Below, piece after piece: positions 5,908 to 33,589 of a stretch of DNA of 37,387 nucleotides (the stretch's first letter is position 1; every line of letters starts with the position of its first letter). Source of the DNA: Pyramidobacter piscolens W5455 (GTDB lineage Bacteria > Synergistota > Synergistia > Synergistales > Dethiosulfovibrionaceae); contig NZ_ADFP01000044.1 of NCBI RefSeq assembly GCF_000177335.1, positions 1 to 37,387 on the forward strand. Direction: 5' to 3'. Position numbers and translations under genes: made by a program. The notes below the pieces were generated by a model. That model saw only the letters and a program-made list of their open reading frames with translations. It had not been told where the DNA came from and did not search any database.

Positions 5908-5939
5908 AGTTGATTTTGGCTGAAGGGGGGAACAGGGAT

Positions 5940-6428
5940 TTGTTTGTCTTTGTGCTTACGTTTATCACCTATTTGCTTCTTTCCTGGTCAGGGGAGGCGC
6001 TACCCGCTTATGAGTACGCGATCGCGCTGCTGGTGGCGGCGATCCTGTACCTGTCGCTGGGACGGAAGAACCGTTCGCGGCGCTACGGCTGGGGAGGCCT
6101 GAGCCCGAAACGCTGGGGACTGTTCGTCTGCTATTTCTTCGGGCCGTTCCTTTGGGCCTTGGTCAGGGCAAATATCGACGTGGCGCTGCGGATCATCACG
6201 GGGCGGGTGAAGCCCGGCATCGTCAAGGTCTCTTCGGAGTTGAAGAGCGGCCTGGGACAGACGGTGCTTGCCGATTCGATCACGCTGACGCCGGGGACCA
6301 TGACGGTGGATATCGATCCCGAAAACGGCGATCTGTACGTCCATTGGATCAACGTGACCGATCTGCGTCCTACGGAGGAAATGGTTTACGGCAGCTTTGG
6401 CGCCTGGGCGAGGAGGCTGACTCAATGA
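5940..6428 (+). CDS. mbhA: Membrane-bound hydrogenase antiporter subunit A (MnhE/MrpE-like)
   Basis: This 162-residue protein belongs to the MnhE family, the E subunit of multisubunit Na+/H+ antiporters and MbhA of the P. furiosus hydrogenase. Two hydrophobic segments near the N-terminus are followed by a longer soluble part with the family stretch LKSGLGQTVLADSITLTPGTMTVD and DLYVHWINVTD. The TTG at 5940 is taken as start because GAAGGGGGG lies 9 bases upstream; the next upstream TTG at 5910 has no such site. It opens a 14-gene run with overlapping or near-touching genes. As part of the Mrp-like membrane module it should help build the cation path rather than catalyse anything itself. Confidence 0.88.
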   Translation: MFVFVLTFITYLLLSWSGEALPAYEYAIALLVAAILYLSLGRKNRSRRYGWGGLSPKRWGLFVCYFFGPFLWALVRANIDVALRIITGRVKPGIVKVSSELKSGLGQTVLADSITLTPGTMTVDIDPENGDLYVHWINVTDLRPTEEMVYGSFGAWARRLTQ

Positions 6429-6697
6429 CGTTTGCGCGTTCGCTCTTCGGCTTTGCGGCCGCGGTTCTCGGCGTGCTGGCCTTCGGCTCGGTGGCGCGCA
6501 TCGTCTGGGGGCCGACGGACGCCGACCGCGCCGTAGCTCTGGACACCATGAATTCGCTGGTGATCGCGATCATGATCCTGCTGGCGGCCGCTTACGACTC
6601 GGTGCTTCTGGTGGATCTGTCCATCGTGTACGGCGGCCTGTCTTTTGTGGCGACGATGTTCCTGGCCCGCTATATCGAGAGGAGGAGCCGCTCATGA
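6425..6697 (+). CDS. mbhB: Membrane-bound hydrogenase antiporter subunit B (MnhF/MrpF-like)
   Basis: This 90-residue protein has three predicted membrane helices and a short basic tail (ARYIERRSRS), as in MrpF and MbhB. The core around RIVWGPTDADRAVALDTMNSL is typical of the family, whose conserved Asp/Arg pair precedes the second helix. It overlaps mbhA by ATGA and is overlapped the same way by mbhC, so the genes are probably translationally coupled. It should be a small structural subunit of the Na+/H+ antiporter module. Confidence 0.88.
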   Translation: MTFARSLFGFAAAVLGVLAFGSVARIVWGPTDADRAVALDTMNSLVIAIMILLAAAYDSVLLVDLSIVYGGLSFVATMFLARYIERRSRS

Positions 6698-7110
6698 GCT
6701 GGATCATGTATGTGCTGATCGTTCCCTTTGCGGCGCTCGGTATGCTGGTCAACTCTCTCGGCGTGATCTCCCTGTACCGTTTCAAGGACGTCTACATGCG
6801 CATGCACGGCGCCACCAAGTGCAGCACGCTGGGGGCGATTTTCTGCGCGGCGGCGGTGATCGTCTACTGCGTGGCGAGAATTGTCGCCGGCGGTGAACTG
6901 CGGTTTGCCGTGTTGATCATCCATATCGTCATGGCGCTGTTCGGGCTGCTGATCGGCAATTCGACGAGCGCCCACGTGCTTTCGCGCGCGGCCTACCGTT
7001 CCGGCCTCAAACCCCGGTTTGCCGTGGTGGACGAATTCGACGGCTTCTGCAAAAAGGAGCTTCTTGAAGAGGAAGCCGCCGAGCTGGCGCAGGAAAAGGA
7101 GCGTGAGTAA
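6694..7110 (+). CDS. mbhC: Membrane-bound hydrogenase antiporter subunit C (MnhG/MrpG-like)
   Basis: This 138-residue protein has three membrane helices. The motif VISLYRFKDVYMRMHGATKCSTLG is the MnhG signature (R-F-x-D-x-Y-x-R-x-H-A/G-x-T-K). The charged tail (about 35 residues, rich in Glu and Lys) is somewhat longer than in stand-alone Mrp complexes and may face the cytoplasm. It belongs to the E-F-G part of the Mrp-like module of the hydrogenase. The start ATG overlaps the mbhB stop codon. Confidence 0.88.
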   Translation: MSWIMYVLIVPFAALGMLVNSLGVISLYRFKDVYMRMHGATKCSTLGAIFCAAAVIVYCVARIVAGGELRFAVLIIHIVMALFGLLIGNSTSAHVLSRAAYRSGLKPRFAVVDEFDGFCKKELLEEEAAELAQEKERE

Positions 7111-7112
7111 GC

Positions 7113-7373
7113 GTGGACTGGCTGCATTTTACGGTTTTGATTCTTTTGCTGGTTTCCGGCTTTTTCACGGTATGGTTCCGCGACCTGCTCTGCTCGGTGA
7201 TCTGTGCCGGAGCCTTCAGTCTGCTGCTGGCGCTTGAGTTTTACATCCTTCAGGCGCCCGACGTGGCCATCGCTCAGGCGGGCATCGGCGCGGCCCTCGA
7301 CACGGCGATCTTCATCATTGCCCTGACGGGCATCGGTTACGTGCATCGCGGGAACGGAGGCGGGCGCCGATGA
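7113..7373 (+). CDS. mbhD: Membrane-bound hydrogenase subunit D (DUF4040)
   Basis: This 86-residue protein has three helices and the DUF4040/MbhD signature ILQAPDVAIAQAGIGAALDTAIF. In full-size MrpA this region is the domain just before the C-terminus; in Mbh complexes it is a separate gene, as here. It starts with GTG at 7113, two bases after the mbhC stop. Conserved residues of this domain lie near the putative Na+ path in the archaeal complex. Confidence 0.87.
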   Translation: MDWLHFTVLILLLVSGFFTVWFRDLLCSVICAGAFSLLLALEFYILQAPDVAIAQAGIGAALDTAIFIIALTGIGYVHRGNGGGRR

Positions 7374-7654
7374 AATCCGTGCGGATTCTTTTCGTCATTG
7401 CGGCCATTATGATGGGCGGAGCGCTGATGGGCGCGGTTTCGTCGCTGCATCCTTTCGGCATGCCTTCGGCTGAAGGACGCGCGGTGGACGAACACTATCT
7501 GAACCGCGCCGGCGCCGATCTGTCGTGCGAAAACGTGGTCACGTCCATCGTCTTCGACTATCGCGGTTTCGACACGATCGGCGAGTCAACGGTGTTGTTT
7601 GCGGCGCTTCTCTCGGTGATGATGCTGTTCCGCAAGGGGGGCAGAAAACAATGA
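7370..7654 (+). CDS. mbhE: Membrane-bound hydrogenase subunit E (MrpA C-terminal-like)
   Basis: This 94-residue protein has an N-terminal helix, a periplasmic-type loop with HYLNRAGADLSCENVVTSIVFDYRGFDTIGE, and a C-terminal helix ending in a basic tail. The VTSIVFDYRGFDTIGE motif marks the MbhE / MrpA C-terminal family. It overlaps mbhD by four bases and mbhF by ATGA. The split of MrpA into separate D and E genes is what distinguishes Mbh-type clusters from ordinary mrp operons. Confidence 0.87.
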   Translation: MKSVRILFVIAAIMMGGALMGAVSSLHPFGMPSAEGRAVDEHYLNRAGADLSCENVVTSIVFDYRGFDTIGESTVLFAALLSVMMLFRKGGRKQ

Positions 7655-8166
7655 AGAACAGGAGCATGCGCCCGCTTTCCGTGATCGCGCGCACGGCCTG
7701 CGACATGTACGCGTGGTTCATGGTGGCTTTCGGCGCCTATGTGATCGTCCACGGCGACATCACGCCCGGCGGCGGCTTCCAGGGCGGCGCGATCTGCGCG
7801 ACGTTCCTGGCGCTGATGCTGGTCACCCAGGGCAGCACCTACGTCTCGGCGTGGCTGAACGAGAATTTTTACAAAGTCTGCCTGTTCCTTGGGCTGTTCA
7901 TGTTCATCGGTTTCGGCCTGATGGGATTGGGCTGGGCGATGGACGGCACGATGATGCTGAACTGGGCCGCGGTAGCTCACGACCAACTGGCGACGGTAAA
8001 GCCATGGTGGCCGCCTTCCGGCACGGTCGCGCTGATGGATATCGCCGTCGGTATCGAAGTCGCCGGCGGGCTGAGCCTGATCCTGATGACGATGTTCCGC
8101 GCCATTCGTCTGGGCACGGTTCAGGAGGATGGCATGGGAAAGGAGACTGGCCATGATCAGCGCTAA
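7651..8166 (+). CDS. mbhF: Membrane-bound hydrogenase subunit F (MnhB domain)
   Basis: This 171-residue protein has four membrane helices and the MnhB signature YVIVHGDITPGGGFQGGAI near residues 30-50. It corresponds to MrpB and MbhF. The ATG at 7651 overlaps the mbhE stop. Its 3' end overlaps the next gene by 14 bases, the longest overlap in the cluster. Confidence 0.88.
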   Translation: MKNRSMRPLSVIARTACDMYAWFMVAFGAYVIVHGDITPGGGFQGGAICATFLALMLVTQGSTYVSAWLNENFYKVCLFLGLFMFIGFGLMGLGWAMDGTMMLNWAAVAHDQLATVKPWWPPSGTVALMDIAVGIEVAGGLSLILMTMFRAIRLGTVQEDGMGKETGHDQR

Positions 8167-8506
8167 TCTGCCTTATTTCGTGGTGGCCGTGCTTTTCTTG
8201 ATCGGGCTTCTCGGCGTTCTGCTGGAGACGAACATGATCAAGATCGGCATCGCCATCGACGTGATGGAATCGGCCGCCAACATGTTCCTGATCGTGCTGG
8301 GATACCGCGAGGGCGGTTATATCCCGGTCAAGTTCCTGATGCCGGCCGGCACGGAAAACTTTGTGCTGCCCACGCCTCAGGCGCTGACGCTGACGGCCAT
8401 CGTCATCGCGCTGGCGACGTCGGCGCTGATGCTGTCGCTGATCGTCATGCTGTACCGCCATTACGGCACGCTTGACGTGCGCGAGATCAGGAGGCTGAGA
8501 GGATGA
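8153..8506 (+). CDS. mbhG: Membrane-bound hydrogenase subunit G (MnhC/NuoK-like)
   Basis: This 117-residue protein has three membrane helices with the NuoK/MnhC pattern: GVLLETNMIKIGIAIDVMESAANMFLI and, in helix 3, PTPQALTLTAIVIALATSALML. It corresponds to MrpC/MbhG and to NuoK of complex I, where acidic residues in the helices line the ion path. The ATG at 8153 is chosen over the upstream ATG at 8129 because it has AAGGAGA before it and starts directly at the first helix. Confidence 0.88.
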   Translation: MISANLPYFVVAVLFLIGLLGVLLETNMIKIGIAIDVMESAANMFLIVLGYREGGYIPVKFLMPAGTENFVLPTPQALTLTAIVIALATSALMLSLIVMLYRHYGTLDVREIRRLRG

Positions 8507-10068
8507 GGCTGATGAACCATCTTCCGGCGCTGGCGCTGGCCCTGCCCCTGCTGGCCGCTTTTGCGACGCCTCTCTTCGCCGCGGTGAGCGCCAAGGCGCG
8601 CGACCGTTGGGTGACGTGCGTCTCCGCGCTGGTGACGCTGGTCGTCTTCGCGTTGCTGCGTCGCGTGCTCGTCCATGGCACGCAGATCTACGTGATGGGG
8701 GCGCCTTCGTGGAACATCTCGTTGCCTTCGGGATTTGCCATCCCCGTGCGCATCATTCTCGAAGTCGACGCGTTCAACGCGCTGGCGGCCTGCGCGGCGG
8801 CGCTGGCGCAGCTGGCGGGCACGATCTACGGCCTGAAATTCGTGAAGAAATTCACCGGGCTCGAGTTTTACAGCGCGCTGTTTCTGCTGCTGACGGCCGG
8901 CACGATGGGCATGATCCTGACCGGCGACCTGTTCAACTTTTTCGTGTTCCTCGAGATCAGCTCGGTGGCGTCCTTCGGTCTGATCGCGTTTTGGCGCGAC
9001 CGTCCCGAGTCGGTCGAGGCTTCCTACAAGTACATGTTGGTGTCGCAGCTGGCGGCCCAGTTGGTGCTGGTCGGGCTGGCGTTCATCTACGGGCGTTACG
9101 GCGTGCTCAACATGGCTGCTTTCAGCCGCGCCGTGCAGCCCGACCTGATCAGCAAAGTGGTGCTGGTCTTCGTTCTCGTCGCGCTGGGCATGAAGTGCGG
9201 CGCGTTCCCGATGCACATGTGGATGCCCGATTCCTACGCCGAGGCCCCCGCTTCCGTGACGGTGATGCTGGTGGCGACCAGTCAGGCTTCGCTCGTGGTG
9301 CTCTGCCGCTTCTGCTTCTCGCTGTACGGCACGGCGATCGGTTCGGCGGCGGTGCCCTGGGCGCTGATCGTCATGGGCTGCCTGTCCATGTTCGGCGGCG
9401 TGTCCATGGCGGTGGTGCAGCACGAAGTGAAGCGCCTGATGGGCTATCACTCGGTGTCGCAGGTGGGCTATATGCTTACGGCGTTCGGCGTCGGGCTGCT
9501 GGCCTTGGGCGACGCGACGGCCATGAACGATTACGGTCTGGCGGCGGTATCCGGCGGACTTTATCACATGATCAACTACATTCTTTACAAGGGATTGCTG
9601 TTCCTCTGCGCCGGCGCTCTGTATTACGTCGCGGGCAGCCGCGATCTCGACAAGATGGGCGGCTTGGCGCGGCGCATGCCGGTCACGAGCGTGCTGTTCC
9701 TGATCGCCGCGGCCGCCATTTCCGGCCTGCCGCCGTTCAACGGCTTCGTCTCCAAGTGGATGATCTACGAGAGCGTCTACGCGGTCCATCCGTTCCTGAT
9801 GGTGGTGGCCCTGGTCTCGTCGGTGCTGACGCTGGCTTCCTTCGTCAAGGTCTACCAGACGGCGTTCCTCGGCCCCGAGCGCTCTCAGTTCGCGGCGGTC
9901 CGCGAGGTGCCGAAGTCGATGATCGCCGGCATGGTGGTATTGGCGGCGGCGATTCTCGTGCTTTCGCTGTTCCCCTCGTGGACGGTGAACACGCTGGTGC
10001 GCCCGGCGGCGGAGGCTCTGGTGGACAAGGCTTCTTACGGAGCGGCAGTGATGGGAGGTGCTTTGTGA
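8503..10068 (+). CDS. mbhH: Membrane-bound hydrogenase antiporter-like subunit H (MnhD/NuoM-like)
   Basis: This 521-residue protein has about 14 transmembrane helices and is the large ion-translocating subunit, homologous to MrpD and NuoM/NuoN. Key segments are LFNFFVFLEISSVASFGL (conserved Glu in helix 5), GMKCGAFPMHMWMPDSYAEAPASVTVML, HEVKRLMGYHSVSQVGYM and GLPPFNGFVSKWMI. There is only one such subunit in the cluster, as in Mbh; Mbx complexes have two. It should translocate Na+ or H+ across the inner membrane, driven by electron transfer in the hydrogenase module. It overlaps mbhG by ATGA. Confidence 0.92.
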   Translation: MRLMNHLPALALALPLLAAFATPLFAAVSAKARDRWVTCVSALVTLVVFALLRRVLVHGTQIYVMGAPSWNISLPSGFAIPVRIILEVDAFNALAACAAALAQLAGTIYGLKFVKKFTGLEFYSALFLLLTAGTMGMILTGDLFNFFVFLEISSVASFGLIAFWRDRPESVEASYKYMLVSQLAAQLVLVGLAFIYGRYGVLNMAAFSRAVQPDLISKVVLVFVLVALGMKCGAFPMHMWMPDSYAEAPASVTVMLVATSQASLVVLCRFCFSLYGTAIGSAAVPWALIVMGCLSMFGGVSMAVVQHEVKRLMGYHSVSQVGYMLTAFGVGLLALGDATAMNDYGLAAVSGGLYHMINYILYKGLLFLCAGALYYVAGSRDLDKMGGLARRMPVTSVLFLIAAAAISGLPPFNGFVSKWMIYESVYAVHPFLMVVALVSSVLTLASFVKVYQTAFLGPERSQFAAVREVPKSMIAGMVVLAAAILVLSLFPSWTVNTLVRPAAEALVDKASYGAAVMGGAL

Positions 10069-10403
10069 TGTTCGGCAGCATTTTCTCCGGCGCCGGCTTC
10101 TGGGATGCGGGCGCGTGGATCCTGGCGTTCCTCTTCGTGGGGGGAGCAGCGCTTTTCATCCGCCGGATGGGACGCAGCGATTACAAAAAAGGGACCGACC
10201 AGGACGAAATTTACTATTCGGGCAACGTCGTCCCCGACGCGGAGGTCTTTACGGTTCCGGCCAGCTCTTCCTACTGGGGATTCCGCGAAGCGCTGAAGGG
10301 CTATTATTCCCATCTGACGGCGCTGCACCGCGGCATCGCTACGGAATACGTGGGTTGGTTCGTGTTCACGGCCGCCCTGATTCTCACGTTTGTGCTCGTT
10401 TAG
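10068..10403 (+). CDS. mbhI: Membrane-bound hydrogenase subunit I
   Basis: This 111-residue protein has an N-terminal helix (WILAFLFVGGAALFI), a polar middle with DQDEIYYSGNVVPD and a C-terminal hydrophobic segment after a possible amphipathic helix. Position between H and J, size and the YYSGN motif match MbhI, the subunit that joins the antiporter and hydrogenase membrane modules. The ATG at 10068 is used; it shares its A with the mbhH stop, and a GTG lies directly before it. Confidence 0.8.
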   Translation: MFGSIFSGAGFWDAGAWILAFLFVGGAALFIRRMGRSDYKKGTDQDEIYYSGNVVPDAEVFTVPASSSYWGFREALKGYYSHLTALHRGIATEYVGWFVFTAALILTFVLV

Positions 10404-10415
10404 GAGGCTGCCGTC

Positions 10416-10886
10416 ATGAAGCTGGAAAATTATCTTCAGGTCCTGCCCAAGTCGCTGTGGGTTTTTACGCTCAACAGCGGTTCCTGCAACGGCTGCGACA
10501 TTGAAATCGTCGCCAGCCTGACGCCCCGTTACGACATCGAGCGTCTCGGGCTGAAGCTGACGGGCACTCCGCGCCATGCCGACGTCCTTCTGGTCACCGG
10601 ACCGGTGACGCGTTTCATGGAGCCGAAGCTGCGCCAGATCTACGCGCAGATCCCCGACCCCAAGGTGGTCATCGCCGTGGGCAACTGCGCCACTTCCGGC
10701 GACGTGTTCTACAAATCCTACAATCTCGTCGGCCCCGTGGATCGCATCGTGCCCGTAGACGTGTACGTCCACGGCTGCGCCATCCGTCCCGAAGCGCTGA
10801 TCGAGGGCGTGGCCAAGGCGGTCACGCTGCTGGAGGCCAAGCGGGCCGGGCTGTTGAACAAGAGCGCGGTGGGAGAGGGGGCGTAA
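10416..10886 (+). CDS. mbhJ: Membrane-bound [NiFe]-hydrogenase small subunit J (NuoB-like)
   Basis: This 156-residue protein is the electron-transfer small subunit that carries the [4Fe-4S] cluster nearest the NiFe site. The four cluster cysteines are visible: two in GSCNGCDIE, one in GNCATSG and one in HGCAIRPE. It is homologous to NuoB of complex I and to EchC and HycG. It starts at an ATG with AGGAGG 8 bases upstream. It is soluble and should sit at the membrane surface between the ferredoxin-like subunit N and the large subunit L. Confidence 0.93.
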   Translation: MKLENYLQVLPKSLWVFTLNSGSCNGCDIEIVASLTPRYDIERLGLKLTGTPRHADVLLVTGPVTRFMEPKLRQIYAQIPDPKVVIAVGNCATSGDVFYKSYNLVGPVDRIVPVDVYVHGCAIRPEALIEGVAKAVTLLEAKRAGLLNKSAVGEGA

Positions 10887-10892
10887 TCCGCG

Positions 10893-11486
10893 ATGGACAT
10901 GAGGGCAAGCGCGCAATCGAAAAAATATCCCACGTCGATGGAAATCTACGCGGATAAAAATGTGAATTACAAAACGCCTCAGGAAGCGCTCGAGTTTCTT
11001 CGGAGCCGTTTCGGCGACGCCGTGACGGAAACGGAGCTGCGCGAGTACAAAGAGGGCGTGTGCCAGTATTCGCGCTGGCATCTGCTGCTTACCGTGAGGC
11101 GCGAGAGGTTTCTCGATCTCGTGGACGCCCTCGGCGAGCTGGACTTTCCCCATTTTCACGTGGCCAGCGGCAACGACGACGGCGACACGATCCGGCAGAT
11201 CTACCACTTCTCGCTGTTCCGCCGCGAAGGACGCGGCAGGGAGCTGACGGTCACGGTCACGGTGCGCGTGCCCAAGACCGACCTGGTCATGCCGTCGCTG
11301 CACGGGCGCAATCCCGGCGTCGGCTTCAGCGAGCGCGAGATGAACGAAATGCTTGGCGTCGCTCACGACGGACAGCCCAACACGGATCTCGTTTTCCTGC
11401 CCGACGGCTGGGACCGCACGATCCTGCCCTGGCGCCGCGACGAGACCGGCCCCGAAGGCAAGGGCGTCATCAATGAGCTCGATTAG
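10893..11486 (+). CDS. mbhK: Membrane-bound hydrogenase subunit K (NuoC-like)
   Basis: This 197-residue protein is of the complex I 30-kDa (NuoC) family. The C-terminal part has the signature PSLHGRNPGVGFSEREMNEM, followed by GQPNTDLVFLPDGWD. It is structural, binding beside the large subunit on the cytoplasmic side. About 20 N-terminal residues before the domain are poorly conserved and the start may be either ATG at 10893 or the in-frame ATG at 10899. In formate hydrogenlyase this domain is fused to the large subunit; here it is separate, as in archaeal Mbh. Confidence 0.88.
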   Translation: MDMRASAQSKKYPTSMEIYADKNVNYKTPQEALEFLRSRFGDAVTETELREYKEGVCQYSRWHLLLTVRRERFLDLVDALGELDFPHFHVASGNDDGDTIRQIYHFSLFRREGRGRELTVTVTVRVPKTDLVMPSLHGRNPGVGFSEREMNEMLGVAHDGQPNTDLVFLPDGWDRTILPWRRDETGPEGKGVINELD

Positions 11487-11497
11487 GAGGTGCCGTG

Positions 11498-12736
11498 ATG
11501 ACCAAAACTTATAAACTTCCCATCGGTCCCGCGCACGTGGGACTCAAGGAACCTGTTACGGCATGGCTCGACATCGAGGGAGAGCGCATCGTCGACGCGA
11601 CGGTCCGCCCCGGAGCGATCCATCGTGGCATCGAGTTTATGAGCCGCGAGCGCAATCCCGTCCAGGTCATCTTTCTGGCCGAGCGGATCTGCGGCATCTG
11701 TTCGTTCAGCCATTCCATCGCGTACGCCAAGGCCGTGGAAGACGCCGCCAAAGTCGAGGTGCCCGTGCGCGGTCAGTACATCCGCTCGCTGGTGCTGGAA
11801 CTGGAGCGCGTTCACTCCCACATCCTCTGGCTGAGCGTGGCCTGCTATTCGATCGGTTTCGACAGCGCCTTTCACCTCGGCATGGCTCTGCGCGAAAAGG
11901 TCATGGACGTCCTGGAAGCGCTCACCGGCAACCGCGTCAACTACGCCGTGACGGCCATCGGCGGCGTGCGCTGGGACGTGACGCCGAAGGTGGACCGCGT
12001 CGTGCGCGACATGATCGCGTATTACCGCAGCGAGTTCCACGAATATTACGACGCCGTGATCAACGATCCGGTGGTCAAGGCCCGTCTGCGCGACGTGGGC
12101 GTGCTCCCTACGGGCGACGCCGTGCGTCTGGACGCGCTCGGGCCGACGTCGCGCGGCAGCGGCGTGCGCGCCGACGTGCGCGAGTCGTCGCCCTACGACG
12201 CGTACTGCGACATTCCCGTCAAGGCCATCGTGCCTCAGGACTATTTCGGCGAAGTTCACGGCGACGTGCTCGACCGTTTCCTCGTGCGCCTGCTCGAGGT
12301 CTATCAGTCGCTCGATCTGCTCGAAAGCATTCTCGACGGGCTGCCCGAAGGGCCGATCACGGCGTTCCCGAAGCCGGTCGCCGGACTGGCCAAACTGAAG
12401 GCGGCCGGCGGCTTCGGCTACGGCTGCATCGAGGCCCCCCGCGGCGACGTCACGCACGTGGTGGAGCTGAAAGCCGGCGACGAAAACGTCTTCATGTGGA
12501 AAGTCCGTGCCCCCACCTATGCGAACGCCCAGGCCTGGCCGCTGATGTTCATCGGCAACGAGATCGCCGACGCGGCGCTGATCATCAACAGCATCGACCC
12601 GTGCATCTCCTGCATGGAGCGCATGGTGCTGACCGACCGCGCGGCGAACCGTCAGGGCGTCGTCACCAAGGACGAGCTTTTGCAGATGAGCCGCGAAAAG
12701 ACGGCTGACCTGAGGAGGAAGATAGGCCAATGCTGA
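11498..12736 (+). CDS. mbhL: Membrane-bound [NiFe]-hydrogenase large subunit L
   Basis: This 412-residue catalytic subunit carries the NiFe centre that reduces protons to H2. Both metal-binding motifs are intact: ERICGICS near residues 62-69 and DPCISC near 367-372. That separates it from NuoD, which lost them, and from Mbx-type sulfane reductases, in which they are altered. A 40-residue tail follows the last cysteine; whether it is cleaved during maturation is unknown. The ATG at 11498 is chosen because AGGAGG ends 7 bases before it; a GTG three bases earlier is closer. No hyp maturation genes are in the window, so these must lie elsewhere. Confidence 0.94.
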   Translation: MTKTYKLPIGPAHVGLKEPVTAWLDIEGERIVDATVRPGAIHRGIEFMSRERNPVQVIFLAERICGICSFSHSIAYAKAVEDAAKVEVPVRGQYIRSLVLELERVHSHILWLSVACYSIGFDSAFHLGMALREKVMDVLEALTGNRVNYAVTAIGGVRWDVTPKVDRVVRDMIAYYRSEFHEYYDAVINDPVVKARLRDVGVLPTGDAVRLDALGPTSRGSGVRADVRESSPYDAYCDIPVKAIVPQDYFGEVHGDVLDRFLVRLLEVYQSLDLLESILDGLPEGPITAFPKPVAGLAKLKAAGGFGYGCIEAPRGDVTHVVELKAGDENVFMWKVRAPTYANAQAWPLMFIGNEIADAALIINSIDPCISCMERMVLTDRAANRQGVVTKDELLQMSREKTADLRRKIGQC

Positions 12737-13716
12737 TTGTGAGAATCGTCCTCGCGCTTCTGCTGTCGTTCTTTGTCGTTCTTTTTGCGCTGTATTTTCA
12801 GGCGCTGGACCGCATCGGTCACGCCCGTATGCAGCGTCGTCTCGGGCCGCCCCTCCTGCAGGGGTTTTACGATTTCTTCAAGCTGCTCGGCAAGGAGAAC
12901 ATCACGCCGCGCCGCGCGGTAGGCTGGATTTTCAACGGCGCGCCGGTGCTCGCGCTGGCGACGGGGCTGATGATCTTCCTGTACATTCCCATGGGCTCGG
13001 TGCCGGCGGTGCTTTCCGGCCGCGGCGACATGATCACCGTGCTGTACCTGATCACGCTGTCGAGCATCTGTCTGGCCATGGCGGCCTTCGCTTCCGGTTC
13101 GCCGATCGCCACGATCGGCGCTCAGCGCGAGATCGTGCTGATGATGAGCTTCGAGATCCCTACGGCGATCATCGTCTCCTCGATCGCATGGCTGGCCAGC
13201 CGGGCCGGCGTACCGGGCGCCCCCTTCGCGCTGTCGACGTACAACCTCAGCAGCCCGTGGAGCATGGTGGGCTGGAGCGGCTTCATCGGCCTGATCTGCT
13301 TTCTCTTCTCGGCGCTGATGATCACCCCGGGCGAAAGCGGCACGGGGCTGATGGACATTGCCGAGGCCAAGACGGAGATCCTCGAGGGCATGACGGTGGA
13401 GTTCAGCGGCGTCAACCTGGCGCTGGTCAATCTGTCGATCACCGTGCGCTCGCTGGCTTTTTCGGCGCTGATCGTGAGCCTGTTCTTTCCCGGATCGCTG
13501 TTCGCCGGCAGTCTGCCCAGAGCCGCGGGCTACGTCGTGGATTTCTTCTGGTTCTGGCTGAAGGTGTTGGCTGTGGCGCTGGTCGGCGTCACGTATCTGC
13601 GCAGCGTCTTCGGACGGCTCAAGATCTGGCAGGCCGCGCGTTTCTACTGGGGGTACGTGGGACTGCTGTCCCTCGCCGGCATGATCCTGATCACCGTCGA
13701 GATCATGCTTCGCTAA
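12730..13716 (+). CDS. mbhM: Membrane-bound hydrogenase subunit M (NuoH-like)
   Basis: This 328-residue protein has about eight membrane helices and is the complex I subunit 1 (NuoH) homologue, also EchB/HycD. The loop with DIAEAKTEILEGMTVEFSG matches the acidic NuoH loop that contacts the peripheral arm and lines the (vestigial) quinone cavity; GPPLLQGFYDFFKLLGKE is the matching N-terminal loop. It anchors the hydrogenase module to the membrane and is part of the coupling path. The gene starts inside the end of mbhL (7-base overlap). Confidence 0.92.
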   Translation: MLIVRIVLALLLSFFVVLFALYFQALDRIGHARMQRRLGPPLLQGFYDFFKLLGKENITPRRAVGWIFNGAPVLALATGLMIFLYIPMGSVPAVLSGRGDMITVLYLITLSSICLAMAAFASGSPIATIGAQREIVLMMSFEIPTAIIVSSIAWLASRAGVPGAPFALSTYNLSSPWSMVGWSGFIGLICFLFSALMITPGESGTGLMDIAEAKTEILEGMTVEFSGVNLALVNLSITVRSLAFSALIVSLFFPGSLFAGSLPRAAGYVVDFFWFWLKVLAVALVGVTYLRSVFGRLKIWQAARFYWGYVGLLSLAGMILITVEIMLR

Positions 13717-13737
13717 AGGAAAGGGAGGAGATCCGCG

Positions 13738-14316
13738 ATGCTGAACGCCATGTCGCTGACGGTGCTCCGTCAGTTCTTTATGCGCTGCCTGACCCGTCCT
13801 TTCCCCGCCATGCGCATGCCCGATTCCATGAGCGGCGCGCTGCAGGCGGCGGCCGAGGGCAAAGTTGCCCTCAATCCTGCCGTGCCGCGCTGGGGGCGCT
13901 TTCGAGGGCGTCTGAATTACGACCGCGCCAAGTGCATCGGCTGCGGCATGTGCACCAAAGTCTGTCCGGCGCGCGCCATCGTCTTCGATCCCGACACCGA
14001 AGGGCAGAAGCCCCGCAAGGTGATGCTGCACGGCGACCGCTGCTGCTTCTGCGCGCAGTGCAACGACGTCTGTCCGGTGTCGGCGCTGAGCATGACGACC
14101 GATTTTGCCTTCTCCAGCTCCGGCGACCGCAAAGCCGGCACGACCCGGAAGGACACGGGCAAGGCGGTCCGGCTGCCGTTCCAGAAAGAATGGCTCGACC
14201 CCAAACCGGGCGAAGTGGAGGAGTTCCTGCCGCCGGAACTGCCCGAGGAAGTTGCCGCGTTTTCCGCAGAACCGCCGGCGCCTGCCGCGCAGCCCGCTGC
14301 GGTTGAAGGGAAATAA
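13738..14316 (+). CDS. mbhN: Membrane-bound hydrogenase ferredoxin-like subunit N (NuoI-like)
   Basis: This 192-residue protein has two [4Fe-4S] cluster motifs, CIGCGMCTKVCP and CCFCAQCNDVCP (each C-x2-C-x2-C-x3-C-P), about 40 residues apart. It should take electrons from reduced ferredoxin and pass them to subunit J. A helix-forming N-terminus may lie on the membrane. The C-terminal 60 residues are Pro/Ala/Glu-rich with low complexity and are longer than in the archaeal protein. It is the last gene of the cluster, 21 bases after mbhM, and a strong terminator follows. Confidence 0.92.
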   Translation: MLNAMSLTVLRQFFMRCLTRPFPAMRMPDSMSGALQAAAEGKVALNPAVPRWGRFRGRLNYDRAKCIGCGMCTKVCPARAIVFDPDTEGQKPRKVMLHGDRCCFCAQCNDVCPVSALSMTTDFAFSSSGDRKAGTTRKDTGKAVRLPFQKEWLDPKPGEVEEFLPPELPEEVAAFSAEPPAPAAQPAAVEGK

Positions 14317-14462: not shown

Positions 14463-14645
14463 ATGTTGCCCTGAAAAGAGTCAGGGCGTTTTCATGAGAA
14501 GGAGGCGGTCGGAAACCGATGGATCAACACGCTGACGGTATTCCCTTACGATTCGGCACAATAGCTCCGGCGGTTTTCGTCCGGCCCTGACGTCCCTTTC
14601 GCGTCGGCGCGCCGCCGCTGCCGGAATGCGAAAGGAGTGTTTTTT
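14463..14645 (+). promoter_or_regulatory. Long structured leader of mgtE with a possible upstream ORF
   Basis: The leader begins with a GCCCTG/CAGGGC hairpin (14468-14488). A full AAGGAGG follows near 14499-14505 although mgtE starts only at 14646. About 13 bases after it, past a CGGT/ACCG mini-hairpin, the ATG at 14519 opens a 23-residue frame (MDQHADGIPLRF... ending VRP) that stops at 14590. A shorter frame starts at 14494. Mg2+ transporter genes are often controlled by M-box riboswitches or leader peptides; this leader has no clear M-box core, so leader-peptide or another RNA control is inferred only. Confidence 0.4.
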
Positions 14646-15998
14646 TTGGAATGCAACAAACTTTTTGAACAGATCGAGAACTGCATCGACCAGAAGCGCT
14701 TCCGCGAAGCCAAGGAGCTGCTCTCCGACATGGAGCCGATCGACATCGCCGAAGGGTTGGAGCGCGATCTGTCGCCGGCCCGCCTGGTGTTTTATTTCCG
14801 ATTGCTGCCCAAGGATCTGGCCGTCGAGGTGTTCGAGCTGTTGGACATCGAAGAGCAAGAACGCTTTTTGCAGCACGCCACGGACGACGAAGTCAAGGAA
14901 ATGATCGAGGAAATGTCCGACGACGACCGCACGGAGCTGTTCGACGAGCTGCCGGCGACCACGGTCAAGCGCCTGCTGCAGAAGCTGTCGCCCGAGGAGC
15001 GCAAGCTGGCCAACACGCTGCTGGGCTATCCACAGGACAGCGCCGGCCGCATCATGACGCCCGAGTACATCGACCTCAAGGCGCACATGACCGCCGAAGC
15101 GGCGCTCGTGCGTATCCGTCAGAAGGCCCGCAGCAAGGAGACCATCTACACGTGCTGCGTCACCGACGAGGGGCGCCACCTGCTCGGCATGGTCGAGCTG
15201 GAAGACTTGATCCTCGCCGACCCGCAGACGGAAGTGCTCGACATCATGGACGGCGGCCCCGTTTCCGTGCCGACTACGGCCGATCAGGAGGAAGCCGCGC
15301 AGCTCATCTCCCGCTACGACCTGCACACGCTGCCGGTGGTGGACAGGGAAAACCGCCTGGTCGGGATCATCACTTTCGACGACATTCTCGACGTCGTCGA
15401 AGAAGAAGCCACGGAAGATTTCGAACGCATGGCGGGCATCGAGCCGGTCGAGGAGGATTACCTCGACGCCGGCCTGCTTACCGTCGCGCGCAAGCGCTTC
15501 ATCTGGCTGATCATCTGCATCGTCGCCGAAGCGCTGACGTCGACGGTGCTCAAACATTATTCGCCGATCGTGCAGCGCGTGGTGTCGCTGACGTTTTTCG
15601 TGCCGCTGCTGATCGGCACCGGCGGCAACGCCGGCACGCAGGCGGCGACGCTGATGATCCGCGGCATGACCGTGGGCGAAGTGCAGTGGCGCGACCTGGG
15701 GCGGATCATCCTGCGCGAGACGACGACGGGGCTTCTGCTCGGAAGCGCGCTGGGCCTGCTGGGCGTGGCGCGCGCGTGGATGATCGGCACGGGAACGGCC
15801 GTTGCCTGGACGGTAGCCGCGGCGGTGACGCTGATCGTGCTGCTGGGCAACCTGGCGGGAACGCTGCTGCCGTTGCTGGCCCGAGCCGTGCGGCTGGACC
15901 CGGCGATCATGTCGGGGCCGCTGATCACGACGGTCGTCGACGTCTGCGGGCTGATCGTTTATTTCGAGCTCGCCGGCGTCTTCATCGGCCTGAATTGA
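14646..15998 (+). CDS. mgtE: Magnesium channel MgtE
   Basis: This 450-residue inner-membrane protein is an MgtE-type Mg2+ channel. In order: an N-terminal helical domain to about residue 130 (acidic, with EMSDDDRTELFDELP), two CBS domains to about 255 (GRIMTPEYIDL, HTLPVVDRENRLVGIITFDDI) that sense cytosolic Mg2+ and gate the pore, a connecting helix, and five membrane helices with PLLIGTGGNAGTQA and the pore Asp in LITTVVDVCGLIVYF. The TTG at 14646 is preferred since AAGGAG lies 8 bases before it; the GTG at 14637 overlaps that ribosome site. It is followed within 75 bases by a second, diverged mgtE. Confidence 0.93.
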   Translation: MECNKLFEQIENCIDQKRFREAKELLSDMEPIDIAEGLERDLSPARLVFYFRLLPKDLAVEVFELLDIEEQERFLQHATDDEVKEMIEEMSDDDRTELFDELPATTVKRLLQKLSPEERKLANTLLGYPQDSAGRIMTPEYIDLKAHMTAEAALVRIRQKARSKETIYTCCVTDEGRHLLGMVELEDLILADPQTEVLDIMDGGPVSVPTTADQEEAAQLISRYDLHTLPVVDRENRLVGIITFDDILDVVEEEATEDFERMAGIEPVEEDYLDAGLLTVARKRFIWLIICIVAEALTSTVLKHYSPIVQRVVSLTFFVPLLIGTGGNAGTQAATLMIRGMTVGEVQWRDLGRIILRETTTGLLLGSALGLLGVARAWMIGTGTAVAWTVAAAVTLIVLLGNLAGTLLPLLARAVRLDPAIMSGPLITTVVDVCGLIVYFELAGVFIGLN

Positions 15999-16028
15999 GC
16001 GGCCTGTGTCCGCGATGAGGTGACGAAC

Positions 16029-16103
16029 ATGAAAAAAATCTGCGTTTTGGACCGGGAGGACGACCCGCCATGTCCGCCCGCATGGGATACAGTTCTCGTT
16101 TGA
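16029..16103 (+). CDS. Possible acidic/proline-rich leader peptide before the second mgtE
   Basis: A 24-residue frame (ATG at 16029, GAGG 8 bases upstream) reads MKKICVLDREDDPPCPP and seven more residues, stopping 34 bases inside the next gene. Acidic runs followed by prolines near the N-terminus destabilise translating ribosomes at low Mg2+ in the E. coli mgtL leader. The same chemistry upstream of a Mg2+ channel gene is suggestive. Caution: part of the acidic run (RED) is forced by the Shine-Dalgarno GGGAGGAC of the next gene, so chance cannot be excluded. Confidence 0.3.
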   Translation: MKKICVLDREDDPPCPPAWDTVLV

Positions 16104-17401
16104 AGACGCTGCTGCAGCAGGGGCGCCTGGACGAAGCCCGGCTGATGATCCGGGGCATGGCGCCGGAAGTGCTGGAGGAAGAACTGCTGCGCCTGCCGCC
16201 GCGAAGCGGCCTGGCGCTGTGCAGCATTTTGAAGCCGCCCCGCCTGGCCGTGCTGATCGAAGGGCTGTCGCGCCGCGAGCGGCAGAAGCTGCTGAGCAGC
16301 GCTTCGATCCCCGAGCTGCGGGGGCTGTTCCTGTCGCTGCCGGAACGTCTGCTGCCGGAACTGCTGAACGCCCTGCCCTCGCGCCAAAAGCATCCGCTGC
16401 TGGAAAAGCTGCCGAAGAATCTGCAAAAGCTTTTGCAACCCAAAAAGGAGTGGGCGGAGGATTCCGTCGGCTACATCATGAGCGGCGACGGCGTGGTCCT
16501 GTCGCCGCGGGACACGGTCGCCGAAGCGCTGGACAAGATCCGGCGCGACGCGCCCGGCAAGGATCTGGTCTATCACTGTTTCGTCATCGACGGCGAGCGC
16601 TTCGTCGGCACGGCGGCGCTGGAAGATCTTGTCCTCGCCGCGCCGGAGGAAAAAGTCGCGCAGCTCACGGAAGAGGACTGCCACGCCGTGCCGCCGGAGA
16701 TGGACCGCGCCGAGGCGGCGCGCATCATGTCGCGCTACGACGTGCAGGTGCTGCCGGTCGTGAAAGACGGGCGGCTCCTCGGCGCGCTGCCCTTCGACGA
16801 CGTGCTCGACGTCATGGAAGACGAAAATACGGAGCTGTTCCACCACGCCGGCGGACTTTACGGCGATAACGACGAGGGCAGCCTGTGGGGCGAAGCGCTG
16901 CGGCGCTTTCCCTGCCTGTTGCTGTGCCTGGTGACGGGCATCCTCACCACGGGCATCATGGAAAATTACGAGGGCATGCTCTCGCAGGTGCTGGCGCTTT
17001 CGTTCTTCGTGCCACTGCTGATCGACACGGGCGGCAACGTGGGCGCGCAGATCTCGGTGCTGATCATCCGCTCCATGGGACTAGGGCGGATGGAAAGCAA
17101 CGTGCTGGGGCGCGTGCTGCTGCGCGAGCTGGTCACGGCCCTGCTGCTGGGCGGCGCCATGGCGCTGCTGGCGGCGGGACGGTCGCTTTTCATCGGCGCG
17201 GGAGGGCAGGTCACGTTCGTGGTCGCCATGGCGATGGTCTGCGTGGTCGTCGCCTCCGATCTGCTCGGCGCGGTCATGCCCTTCGTGGTCAAACGCCTCG
17301 GCTTCGACCCGGCGCTGATCTCCGGGCCGCTGCTGGCGACGATCGTCGACGTGCTCGGCCTGGCGCTGTATTTCGCCGTGGCCAGCGCGGTGCTGCTGTA
17401 G
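16070..17401 (+). CDS. Second MgtE-family magnesium transporter (diverged paralogue)
   Basis: This 443-residue protein has the MgtE layout: helical N-domain, two CBS domains (DSVGYIMSGDGVVL, VQVLPVVKDGRLLGALPFDDVLDV), and five membrane helices with PLLIDTGGNVGAQIS and the pore Asp in LLATIVDVLGLALYF. The N-domain is far less acidic than in the first copy and is rich in Leu, Arg and Pro, so its Mg2+ sensing may be changed. The ATG at 16070 has GGGAGGA 9 bases upstream. It is probably co-transcribed with the first mgtE. It could be a Mg2+ channel with another set point or serve another divalent cation. Confidence 0.87.
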   Translation: MSARMGYSSRLKTLLQQGRLDEARLMIRGMAPEVLEEELLRLPPRSGLALCSILKPPRLAVLIEGLSRRERQKLLSSASIPELRGLFLSLPERLLPELLNALPSRQKHPLLEKLPKNLQKLLQPKKEWAEDSVGYIMSGDGVVLSPRDTVAEALDKIRRDAPGKDLVYHCFVIDGERFVGTAALEDLVLAAPEEKVAQLTEEDCHAVPPEMDRAEAARIMSRYDVQVLPVVKDGRLLGALPFDDVLDVMEDENTELFHHAGGLYGDNDEGSLWGEALRRFPCLLLCLVTGILTTGIMENYEGMLSQVLALSFFVPLLIDTGGNVGAQISVLIIRSMGLGRMESNVLGRVLLRELVTALLLGGAMALLAAGRSLFIGAGGQVTFVVAMAMVCVVVASDLLGAVMPFVVKRLGFDPALISGPLLATIVDVLGLALYFAVASAVLL

Positions 17402-22589: not shown

Positions 22590-22595
22590 AAAAGC

Positions 22596-22692
22596 AGGAA
22601 CCGGGGGCGTCGGCGTATCCGGCTGAGAGGAGACGAAACGGTCTCGACCCTTGGAACCTGATCCGGTTCATACCGGTGCAGGGAAGGTGCGG
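22596..22692 (+). promoter_or_regulatory. TPP riboswitch (thi-box)
   Basis: The two conserved thi-box blocks are present: GGCTGAGAGG (22621-22630) and ACCCTTGGAACCTGATCCGG through TACCGGTGCAGGGAA (22648-22685). They form the pyrimidine- and pyrophosphate-sensing arms that bind thiamine pyrophosphate. The variable stem between them is GAGACGAAACGGTCTC. It precedes thiT, so high TPP should reduce production of the thiamine transporter. Confidence 0.96.
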
Positions 22693-22702
22693 GGTTTCCC
22701 CG

Positions 22703-22741: not shown

Positions 22742-23245
22742 ATGTATCAACGCAGCAAAACGCAGTCGGTGGTAGAGGCGGCGCTGTGCATTGCGCTGGC
22801 GGTGGTGTTCTCGCGGCTGAGGCTGTTCCGTCTGCCTCAGGGCGGTTCGGTGACGCTGGAGATCGTGCCGCTTCTGGTCTACGCGATGCGCTGGGGACTG
22901 CTGAAAGGGATCGGCGCTGGCGCCGTGGCCGGCCTTTTGCAGTACGTGATGGGCGGCTACGTGGTTCATCCCGTGCAGGGGCTGCTCGATTATCCGCTGG
23001 CCTACGCGGCGCTGGGACTGGCCGCCTTGGGCGGAGAGCACGTCTTCGTAGGCATCCTCGTCGCCGTGGCGGCGCGGATCGTCTGTCACGTGGCGTCGGG
23101 CGTGGTGTTCTTCGCGTCCTACGCGCCGGCCGGCACGCATCCGCTGGTCTACTCGCTGCTGTACAACGGCAGCTTCATGGCCGCCAACATGGTGATCGCG
23201 CTGATCCTGGTGCCGCTGATTTTGGCGCGGCTGAAAAAATTCTGA
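22742..23245 (+). CDS. thiT: ECF thiamine transporter substrate-binding (S) component ThiT
   Basis: This 167-residue membrane protein with six helices is the thiamine-specific S component of an energy-coupling-factor transporter. The family motifs are SVTLEIVPLLVYAMRWGLLKG, the GLLQYVMGGYVVHPVQGLLDYPLAY stretch whose aromatic residues bind thiamine, and GVVFFASYAP later. It needs a separate EcfA/A'/T module, not found in this window, so a shared group II module elsewhere is expected. The TPP riboswitch directly upstream strongly supports the substrate. The ATG follows GGGAGG by 8 bases. Confidence 0.95.
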   Translation: MYQRSKTQSVVEAALCIALAVVFSRLRLFRLPQGGSVTLEIVPLLVYAMRWGLLKGIGAGAVAGLLQYVMGGYVVHPVQGLLDYPLAYAALGLAALGGEHVFVGILVAVAARIVCHVASGVVFFASYAPAGTHPLVYSLLYNGSFMAANMVIALILVPLILARLKKF

Positions 23246-31948: not shown

Positions 31949-32461
31949 TTACGCCAGCGCCTTGACGGCCTTCAGCAGCTTGTCGTAGTCGATGGAGTTC
32001 GTGGCCTCGGGCACCACTTCGACGTAGCGGATCACGTCGTCGCGATCGACCACGAACACGGCGCGGGCCAGCAGGCGCAGTTCCTTGAGCAGCACGCCGT
32101 AGGCCGTGCCGAACGAAGCCTCGCGGTGGTCGGAGAGCGTCGCCACCTTGTCGAAGCCCTTGGCGGCGCAGTAGCGCTTCAGCGCGAAGGGCAGATCCAT
32201 GCTGACATTGAGCACGTACACGTCGCCCAGCTCGGCCGTGTCCTCGTTGAACCACGTGGCCTGCAGATCGCAGACGGGCGTGTCCAGCGACGGCGTGACG
32301 GAGAGCACTTTGATCTTGCCCTCGTAATCTTTCAGCGACTTGGGCGCCATGGCCGTATCGACCACGACGAAATCGGGCGCTTTGTCGCCGACTTTCAGCT
32401 CCGGCCCGACCAGCGTGAGCGGAGTGCCCTTCATCGTAACGGTGCCTTTTCTTTCCTGCAT
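31949..32461 (-). CDS. tpx: Thiol peroxidase (Tpx, atypical 2-Cys peroxiredoxin)
   Basis: This 170-residue protein reduces H2O2 and alkyl hydroperoxides using thioredoxin. The peroxidatic Cys is C64 in VTPSLDTPVC and the resolving Cys is C98 in LKRYCAAKGF, the Tpx spacing. MDLPFA and DREASFG are also family marks. The ATG at 32461 has AAGGAGG 9 bases upstream. It is monocistronic, divergent from the beta-lactamase-like gene, and should protect this presumed anaerobe against oxygen exposure. Confidence 0.95.
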   Translation of the reverse strand: MQERKGTVTMKGTPLTLVGPELKVGDKAPDFVVVDTAMAPKSLKDYEGKIKVLSVTPSLDTPVCDLQATWFNEDTAELGDVYVLNVSMDLPFALKRYCAAKGFDKVATLSDHREASFGTAYGVLLKELRLLARAVFVVDRDDVIRYVEVVPEATNSIDYDKLLKAVKALA

Positions 32462-32616: not shown

Positions 32617-32645
32617 TTGACAGCGGCGGCGGGAACGTTTACACT
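32617..32645 (+). promoter_or_regulatory. Sigma70-type promoter for the beta-lactamase-fold gene
   Basis: A perfect TTGACA (32617-32622), a 17-base spacer and TACACT (32640-32645) lie 31 bases before the start codon, with AAAGGAGG between. The gene thus has complete expression signals. Confidence 0.75.
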
Positions 32646-32676
32646 CTTGCGGGATCATTCAAAGGAGGAATTTTTC

Positions 32677-33396
32677 ATGCCTGAAAACTGGAAGGGCGGC
32701 GTCCTGCGGGCGATCGCCGGCGCCGACGGCGGCGCGCCGGCGGCGGCCGTTTACGACGGCGCGGCGGACATGCGGCTTGTCTATAACGGCGGCCGTTTGG
32801 TGCCCGCCGGTCTGATGGCGGCGCTGCCGGCGCTGTGGAACCTGTTCGAGCGCGTCGAAGCGGGGGAGTTCGCGCTGGAAGACGCGCTTCCCGGCGCTTC
32901 CATGACATGGGAAGAGGCGGCCCGCGCCGTCTGCGGCGGCGGAGTGGAAGCGGCCAATGCGCTGATCGGCGCGCTCGGCACGGAAGCGGTCAACGCCGCG
33001 GCCCGGCGCGCCGGCATGGAGCAGACGGAGATCCTCCGTCCGGTAGGGGAAAACGAATCGTTGCGGGGCAACGTCACCTGCGCGGAAGACGCGGCCGGAT
33101 TCTTCCGCCGCCTGCTGGACCGCGAGGGGCTGCCGGACGCTTCCTGCCGCCGCCTGCTGGCGCTGATGTCGGAATCTCGGAGCGACGACAAGTTCGCTTC
33201 CGTGGGAGGGAAATGCTTGGCGCGTTTCGGCGCTTCGTTTCCCGGCAGCGAATACGACGCCGGCGTCCTCTGTCCCGACGGCCAGCGCCCCGTGATCGCC
33301 GCGGCGCTGGTCATGCTGCAGCCGGATCGCGAAAAGGGCGAACGCTTCTGCCGCCGCGTCGCCGAAGCCGTCTGCGGCGAGCGCATGCAGGCATAG
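32677..33396 (+). CDS. Class A beta-lactamase-fold protein lacking catalytic residues
   Basis: This 239-residue protein follows the layout of class A beta-lactamase/serine hydrolase domains: VYNGGRLVPAGLMAALPALW where the SxxK helix should be, CGGGVEAANALIGALG where SDN should be, RGNVTCAEDAAGFFRRLL where the Glu166 region sits, VGGKCLARFG in place of KTG, and YDAGVLCPDGQRPVIAAALV as the last strand. The nucleophilic Ser, its Lys, and the SDN motif are all replaced, so no hydrolase activity is expected. There is no signal peptide, so the protein is probably cytosolic. A clean promoter and AAAGGAGG suggest it is expressed. A binding or regulatory role is possible; the family assignment rests on pattern reading. 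Confidence 0.62.
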   Translation: MPENWKGGVLRAIAGADGGAPAAAVYDGAADMRLVYNGGRLVPAGLMAALPALWNLFERVEAGEFALEDALPGASMTWEEAARAVCGGGVEAANALIGALGTEAVNAAARRAGMEQTEILRPVGENESLRGNVTCAEDAAGFFRRLLDREGLPDASCRRLLALMSESRSDDKFASVGGKCLARFGASFPGSEYDAGVLCPDGQRPVIAAALVMLQPDREKGERFCRRVAEAVCGERMQA

Positions 33397-33409: not shown

Positions 33410-33589
33410 AACAAAAGCCGTCACGGAGACACGGAGAAAAGCGAAAAACATGGACTATAGAAAAAAAACGAGGAAAGCTGGCAGGAGAACGATCTCCTGC
33501 CAGCTTCTTCTTATGTTTTTGCCGCGAAGCGGCAGCCGTCTTTTGCCTTTTCTTTGCGCCTTCGTGTTTCCGCGGCGGCTTTTGTTTAC
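33410..33589. repeat. Inverted-repeat element with CACGGAGACACGGAG-type arms
   Basis: The left arm ACAAAAGCCGTCACGGAGAC (33411-33430, then ACGGAGAAAAGCG) matches, in opposite orientation, the right arm ending at 33585 (read on the minus strand ACAAAAGCCGCCGCGGAAAC followed by ACGAAGGCGCAAAG). Between them lie the pst terminator and about 50 other bases. Similar CACGGAGACACGGAG sequences are seen between genes in many bacteria. The right arm touches the pstB stop codon. Confidence 0.55.
33461..33506 (-). terminator. Terminator of the pst operon
   Basis: On the minus strand AAGCTGGCAGGAG and CTCCTGCCAGCTT form a 13-bp stem, followed by TCCTCG and T8. It ends transcription after pstB. Confidence 0.88.

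What the first reader, a model, noticed from the sequence alone, without database searches (positions are those of the whole stretch)
32677..33396. Beta-lactamase-fold protein without catalytic residues but with strong expression signals
The SxxK, SDN and KTG positions read as PAGLMAAL, GGV and KCL. The rest of the domain is intact and the gene has a TTGACA-17-TACACT promoter and AAAGGAGG. There is no signal peptide, so it is unlike secreted beta-lactamases. It may be a cytosolic binding protein or inhibitor.
Basis: partly seen in the sequence, partly recalled or inferred. Interest (0 to 1): 0.5.

Follow-up and report, generated by a model that had tools for sequence, protein, structure and literature searches.

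The report
Dead beta-lactamase-fold protein in Pyramidobacter
This bacterium keeps a gene for a protein shaped like penicillin-binding and penicillin-destroying enzymes but with all the catalytic residues gone; selection still preserves it, so it probably has a new, non-enzymatic job inside the cell.

Summary
Window 32677-33396 (+) encodes a 239-aa PF13354 (Beta-lactamase2) protein (E 2.5e-17), modelled with a full-length class A beta-lactamase/PBP-A fold (pLDDT 93; best Z 30.4). SxxK, SDN and KTG are all lost. Orthologues with the same losses, between tpx and pst, occur in 4 of 6 genomes of the genus Pyramidobacter. In the phylum, 51 other matches keep SxxK wherever it could be read (49 of 49). 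The dead clade sits on a very long stem (2.73 changes/site) but now evolves under constraint (dN/dS 0.33), with a conserved promoter. Intact relatives also appear to lack signal peptides and lack Glu166, so "cytosolic" is ancestral; 25 of the 26 whose flanks were examined lie beside epimerase, NlpC/P60, DUF819 or transporter genes, suggesting muropeptide catabolism. Best reading: a muropeptide peptidase of PBP-A type that lost catalysis and was kept for a non-catalytic role, probably protein binding (inferred).

The parts
32677..33396 (+). Catalytically dead PF13354 (class A beta-lactamase/PBP-A fold) protein, 239 aa
   Evidence: Pfam E 2.5e-17; AlphaFold2 pLDDT 93.1, best PDB matches 4ewf Z 30.4 and PBP-A 2j9o Z 28.2; orthologues in 3 further genomes
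32617..32645 (+). Sigma-70-like promoter TTGACA-17-TACACT
   Evidence: 10/12, expected 0.1; hexamers identical in four Pyramidobacter genomes
32661..32668 (+). Shine-Dalgarno AAAGGAGG, 8 nt before the ATG
   Evidence: sequence
32800..32826 (+). Ex-SxxK region VPAGLMAAL (residues 42-50); ex-Ser = L46, ex-Lys = A49
   Evidence: alignment with intact FPSASLIKL
32932..32958 (+). Ex-SDN region CGGGVEAAN (residues 86-94)
   Evidence: alignment with VSDNTAAN
33217..33246 (+). Ex-KTG strand LARFGASFPG (residues 181-190)
   Evidence: alignment with LAHKTGELPG
33474..33507 (.). Two-way terminator-like hairpin separating the gene from convergent pstB
   Evidence: 14-15 pair stem on either strand; -31.3 kcal/mol, z -7.3
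31949..32461 (-). tpx-like peroxiredoxin (Redoxin/AhpC-TSA), divergent neighbour; adjacency conserved in G001, G004 and G005
   Evidence: Pfam; synteny

Best explanation
A genus-specific pseudoenzyme. The ancestor was a cytosolic serine peptidase of PBP-A type (class A beta-lactamase fold, no Glu166), encoded with a transporter, an L-Ala-D/L-Glu-type dipeptide epimerase and an NlpC/P60 peptidase, that is, a muropeptide-catabolism cluster. In the Pyramidobacter lineage it lost the nucleophile, the general base, SDN and KTG and shortened the loops round the cleft in one burst. It came to lie as a single gene with its own promoter between tpx and the pst operon, and has since been held under purifying selection. 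Shown: the fold (by homology and a model), loss of all three motifs, orthology within the genus, the long stem followed by constraint, the conserved promoter, and the neighbourhood of the intact relatives. Inferred: that it has no hydrolase activity, that the ancestor trimmed muropeptides, and that the present role is non-catalytic. The mechanism I think most likely (about 40%) is binding a protein partner through the retained surface, as a scaffold or regulator, rather than binding a small ligand in the remodelled cleft (about 25%).
For: Homology: PF13354 E 2.5e-17; 31% identity over 228 columns to the intact G007 protein. Structure: pLDDT 93.1, Z 30.4 over 232 residues to 4ewf and 28.2 to PBP-A. 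Loss is unique to the orthologues: all 4 lack the motifs, while SxxK is present in 49 of 49 other phylum matches in which that region could be read (51 other matches; 2 start after it), SDN/SDD in 50 of 51 (the other reads SGN) and K[ST][GA] in 43 of 51 by pattern, the 8 others not examined further. One clade, 100/100 support, stem 2.73, inner branches 0.02-0.12. dN/dS 0.33 in the three distinct pairs, synonymous excess p 4e-6 to 7e-5. Promoter hexamers conserved. Synteny tpx - gene - pst in G000, G001, G004 and G005. Intact relatives: transporter, epimerase, NlpC/P60 or DUF819 within about 1.5 kb in 25 of 26 loci, and in 0 of the 4 dead loci; Pfam names of these neighbours. Position 166 is Met or Phe in 26 of 26 intact loci (register).
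Against: With only the three genus sequences as alignment the model falls to pLDDT 46.6, so the confident model leans on the intact relatives. dN/dS of 0.33 is higher than in the neighbouring genes (0.07-0.26 for informative pairs), so constraint is weaker than there. Only three distinct orthologue sequences were available. The placement as sister to G007 has 93/77 support, is flagged as a meeting of long branches, and three dead rows have deviating composition. No expression or activity data. The partner-binding step has no direct evidence.
Confidence: 0.72

Rival explanations
1. The protein still binds a muropeptide, D-Ala-D-Ala or beta-lactam-like ligand non-covalently in the old cleft and acts as a cytosolic sensor or sink.
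For: The fold is kept and the segments around the old cleft are among the best conserved in the genus: 1 of 19 columns vary in the ex-SxxK helix, 2 of 21 in the omega region, 3 of 31 around ex-KTG, against 9 of 17 in the loop 62-78. Intact relatives lie in muropeptide-type clusters.
Against: The one variable column of the ex-SxxK helix is the ex-Ser itself (L or P). The Ser, Lys, Asn and KTG residues that hold such ligands are all gone, and the loops that wall the cleft are shortened. G001, G004 and G005 have the gene but no hit to the g2 epimerase.
Confidence: 0.25
2. A decaying relic with no function, not yet lost.
For: dN/dS is above that of neighbours; the orthologue was not found in 2 of 6 genus genomes, and beside tpx in G002 another gene lies instead.
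Against: Synonymous excess p 4e-6 to 7e-5; no internal stop in any of four genomes; conserved promoter; first 28 residues vary at 1 column; the two genomes without it are only 82-83% complete.
Confidence: 0.13
3. A new enzyme or redox protein on the old fold, using other residues, for example the seven cysteines, next to the thiol peroxidase gene.
For: All seven cysteines are shared by the three distinct orthologues, and six of the seven positions have no cysteine in the intact relatives of alignment A1; the gene is divergent from tpx.
Against: Seven random columns would all be invariant with probability 0.21; 2.9% Cys is not extreme in this window. No coordinates were available to test clustering.
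Confidence: 0.12

Closest known systems
PBP-A of Thermosynechococcus (PDB 2j7v, 2j9o; PMC11189452, abstract and three passages read)
   Same: Same fold over the whole length (Z 28); second-best profile match of the family alignment (E 7.4e-52); like the intact relatives it lacks the class A omega-loop glutamate; it is a DD-carboxypeptidase/endopeptidase acting on muropeptides (paper)
   Different: PBP-A is an active enzyme; the window protein has lost SxxK, SDN and KTG and has shorter loops
Class A beta-lactamases (PF13354; 4ewf Sphaerobacter thermophilus)
   Same: Fold, Z 30.4, 23% identity
   Different: All catalytic motifs are absent and no signal peptide is seen; 24 bits against the NCBIfam class A cut-off of 200
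Intact signal-less PF13354 proteins of Synergistota, beside epimerase/NlpC/transporter genes (L041-L056 and others)
   Same: Direct relatives, 18-33% identity; same N-terminal architecture
   Different: They keep SxxK, SDN and KTG and lie in muropeptide-type clusters

Membership tests
Pfam PF13354 Beta-lactamase2 | Profile score above the curated cut-off | tested here: met
   63.4 bits against 22
Pfam PF13354 Beta-lactamase2 | Class A / PBP-A fold | tested here: met
   Predicted model only; 999 of 999 aligned chains Z >= 8, best 30.4
Class A beta-lactamase | Ser70-x-x-Lys73 | tested here: not met
   L46-M-A-A49, P46 in G001
Class A beta-lactamase | Ser130-Asp131-Asn132 | tested here: not met
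   GGV/GSV
Class A beta-lactamase | Lys234-Thr-Gly | tested here: not met
   RFG/HFG region
Class A beta-lactamase | Glu166 in the omega loop | tested here: not met
   Already Met/Phe in the intact relatives; the window protein has Val at that column and an omega loop three residues shorter
Class A beta-lactamase | NCBIfam equivalog score | tested here: not met
   24.1 bits against 200
Class A beta-lactamase | Hydrolysis of beta-lactams | not testable with these tools
   needs an assay
PBP-A-type DD-peptidase | Acylable serine with Lys base | tested here: not met
   absent; no conserved displaced SxxK
Pseudoenzyme (retained, non-catalytic) | Homology to enzymes, catalytic residues lost, retained under selection | tested here: met
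   only three distinct sequences
Pseudoenzyme (retained, non-catalytic) | Absence of activity in an assay | not testable with these tools
   needs an assay

The most novel reading that the evidence does not exclude
A muropeptide-catabolic PBP-A-like peptidase was converted, in one burst at the base of Pyramidobacter, into a cytosolic non-catalytic regulator with its own promoter beside tpx and pst: an exaptation of the beta-lactamase fold for signalling or protein binding inside the cell, in a lineage whose intact relatives represent a little-described cytosolic, Glu166-less branch tied to dipeptide epimerases.
Probability: 0.35. Interest if true: 0.55.

Novelty: new variant of a known kind. 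Interest (0 to 1): 0.38.

Why it matters
Annotation by Pfam would call it a beta-lactamase, yet it cannot hydrolyse beta-lactams by the known mechanism, so it should not be counted as a resistance gene. It is a clear case of an enzyme fold losing catalysis and then being conserved, and the search exposed a cytosolic-looking, Glu166-less branch of the beta-lactamase fold beside muropeptide-type genes in Synergistota, whose activity is directly testable.

Tried and rejected
Shifted Ser/Lys pair: searched for SxxK in the three distinct orthologues; the single hit (S169DDK, window only) is not conserved. Functional cysteine cluster: all seven are conserved, but the chance of that is 0.21, so not claimed. 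Acquisition on a phage: no relative in viral contigs, close-relative patterns only. Other copies: none in the window's own genome. A named relative: one locus in genome contigs, Pyramidobacter sp. C12-8, whose contig length (125,692) equals that of G004:C155. Genus-only structure control: pLDDT 46.6, reported as evidence against. dN/dS: its NG86 values above 1 for pstB and pstS come from trimming unaligned sequences of different length and were dropped in favour of the codon-aligned values; four YN00 runs failed there. pstA of G004 was matched only in part. The tree used 49 of 55 matches; six shorter than 230 residues were left out. One search examined 30 of the 55 phylum matches (those with 1.5 kb flanks), 26 of them intact.

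Literature: ten searches. Searches returned nothing; the listings of the others show no paper on a dead PF13354 protein of Pyramidobacter or on a beta-lactamase-fold protein in dipeptide-epimerase clusters, but only listings were read, except PMC11189452 (abstract and three passages). The library holds open-licence papers only. LppW of Mycobacterium as another catalytically deficient member is recalled; one search looked for it and its listing did not confirm this.

Full report
OBSERVATION. It is 239 codons from ATG 32677, preceded by AAAGGAGG and by TTGACA-17-TACACT, a match expected 0.1 times by chance in this stretch. In the divergent tpx - gene intergenic region of four Pyramidobacter genomes the two hexamers are identical, and the gene ends before a strong two-way hairpin. 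It therefore looks like a single-gene unit between tpx (divergent) and pstB (convergent); the same order holds in G001, G004 and G005. The genus is named through a GTDB record, Pyramidobacter sp. C12-8.

WHAT IT IS. Pfam gives only PF13354, E 2.5e-17; NCBIfam class A beta-lactamase scores 24 of the required 200 bits. A model from 29 aligned proteins has pLDDT 93.1 and matches class A beta-lactamases and PBP-A over its whole length (4ewf Z 30.4, rmsd 2.0, 232 residues; PBP-A 2j9o Z 28.2). With only three genus sequences the model is poor (46.6), so the fold rests on homology with the intact relatives. About 17 residues before the SDN helix, 3 in the omega loop and up to 8 before the KTG strand are also missing, so the cleft is remodelled as well as inactivated.

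HOW UNUSUAL. A profile search of 185 genomes of the phylum gave 55 matches in 48 genomes. All 55 were read. The four Pyramidobacter orthologues lack every motif. Of the other 51, SxxK is present in 49 of 49 with that region in the hit, SDN/SDD in 50 of 51 (one SGN), and K[ST][GA] in 43 of 51 by pattern; I did not look further at the remaining 8. G003, a genome of the genus with 83% completeness and 6% contamination, carries an intact but different paralogue beside the same transporter type; it falls elsewhere in the tree.

EVOLUTION. The dead proteins form one clade (100/100) on a stem of 2.73 changes per site, with inner branches of 0.02-0.12, next to the intact G007 protein of the same family (93/77; long branches and composition make this place unsure). 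dN/dS is 0.33 in the three distinct genome pairs (G004 and G005 proteins are identical), with a significant synonymous excess, but higher than in tpx and pst genes. The best conserved parts are residues 1-28 (1 variable column), the ex-SxxK helix (1 of 19, and that one is the ex-Ser), the omega region (2 of 21) and the ex-KTG strands (3 of 31). A burst followed by constraint fits gain of a new role better than simple decay.

ANCESTRAL ROLE. Intact relatives also appear to have no signal peptide (by eye) and have Met or Phe where class A enzymes have Glu166 (26 of 26; register), as PBP-A lacks that Glu (PMC11189452, passage). Their neighbours within about 1.5 kb include a Na_H_antiporter/GntP-like transporter in 22 of 26, a dipeptide-epimerase-like enolase in 14 of 26, and at least one of transporter, epimerase, NlpC/P60 or DUF819 in 25 of 26; the four dead loci have none (names; that the enolase-superfamily protein is an L-Ala-D/L-Glu-type epimerase is my reading of its family and neighbours). 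In the window's genome an epimerase - DUF819 - NlpC/P60-like set without this gene is found on contig C24 (DUF819 there by eye), while G001, G004 and G005 have no hit to that epimerase, so the dead protein is not tied to that pathway now. That the intact enzymes trim muropeptides is inferred from neighbourhood and from PBP-A, not tested.

MECHANISM. Hydrolysis by the known mechanism is excluded by sequence. Non-covalent binding in the old cleft is possible, since its walls are conserved, but its ligand-holding residues are gone. I favour a protein-binding role (about 40%), then ligand binding (25%), relic (13%), new chemistry (12%).

VERDICT. It is a new variant of a known kind: a pseudoenzyme of the PF13354 fold, found in 4 of the 6 genus genomes held.

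Noticed in passing
L041-L056, L061-L068, L070 (1.5 kb flanks): Cytosolic-looking, Glu166-less, motif-intact PF13354 proteins of Synergistota lie beside a GntP/NhaC-like transporter, a dipeptide-epimerase-like enolase, NlpC/P60 or DUF819 genes in 25 of 26 loci; a candidate cytosolic muropeptide peptidase branch.
   Followed up: partly
L037:1-5000 (G003:C459): Intact PF13354 gene between a transporter and an amino acid permease-like gene, with a D-aminoacylase-like start on the other strand upstream and an acetamidase/formamidase-like gene downstream (last three named by eye).
   Followed up: no
L040:637-2602 (G002:C29): In G002 the gene beside tpx is not the dead protein but, by eye, an SH3/NlpC-P60-like gene.
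   Followed up: no
22593-22702: TPP riboswitch (Rfam RF00059, 69.2 bits) before a small integral membrane protein ending at 23245, likely a thiamine transporter.
   Followed up: partly
5910-14316: By eye: Mrp-type Na+/H+ antiporter genes followed by NiFe-hydrogenase-like/Nuo-like subunits, resembling an energy-converting membrane complex.
   Followed up: no
14637-17401: By eye: two adjacent MgtE-like magnesium transporter genes.
   Followed up: no
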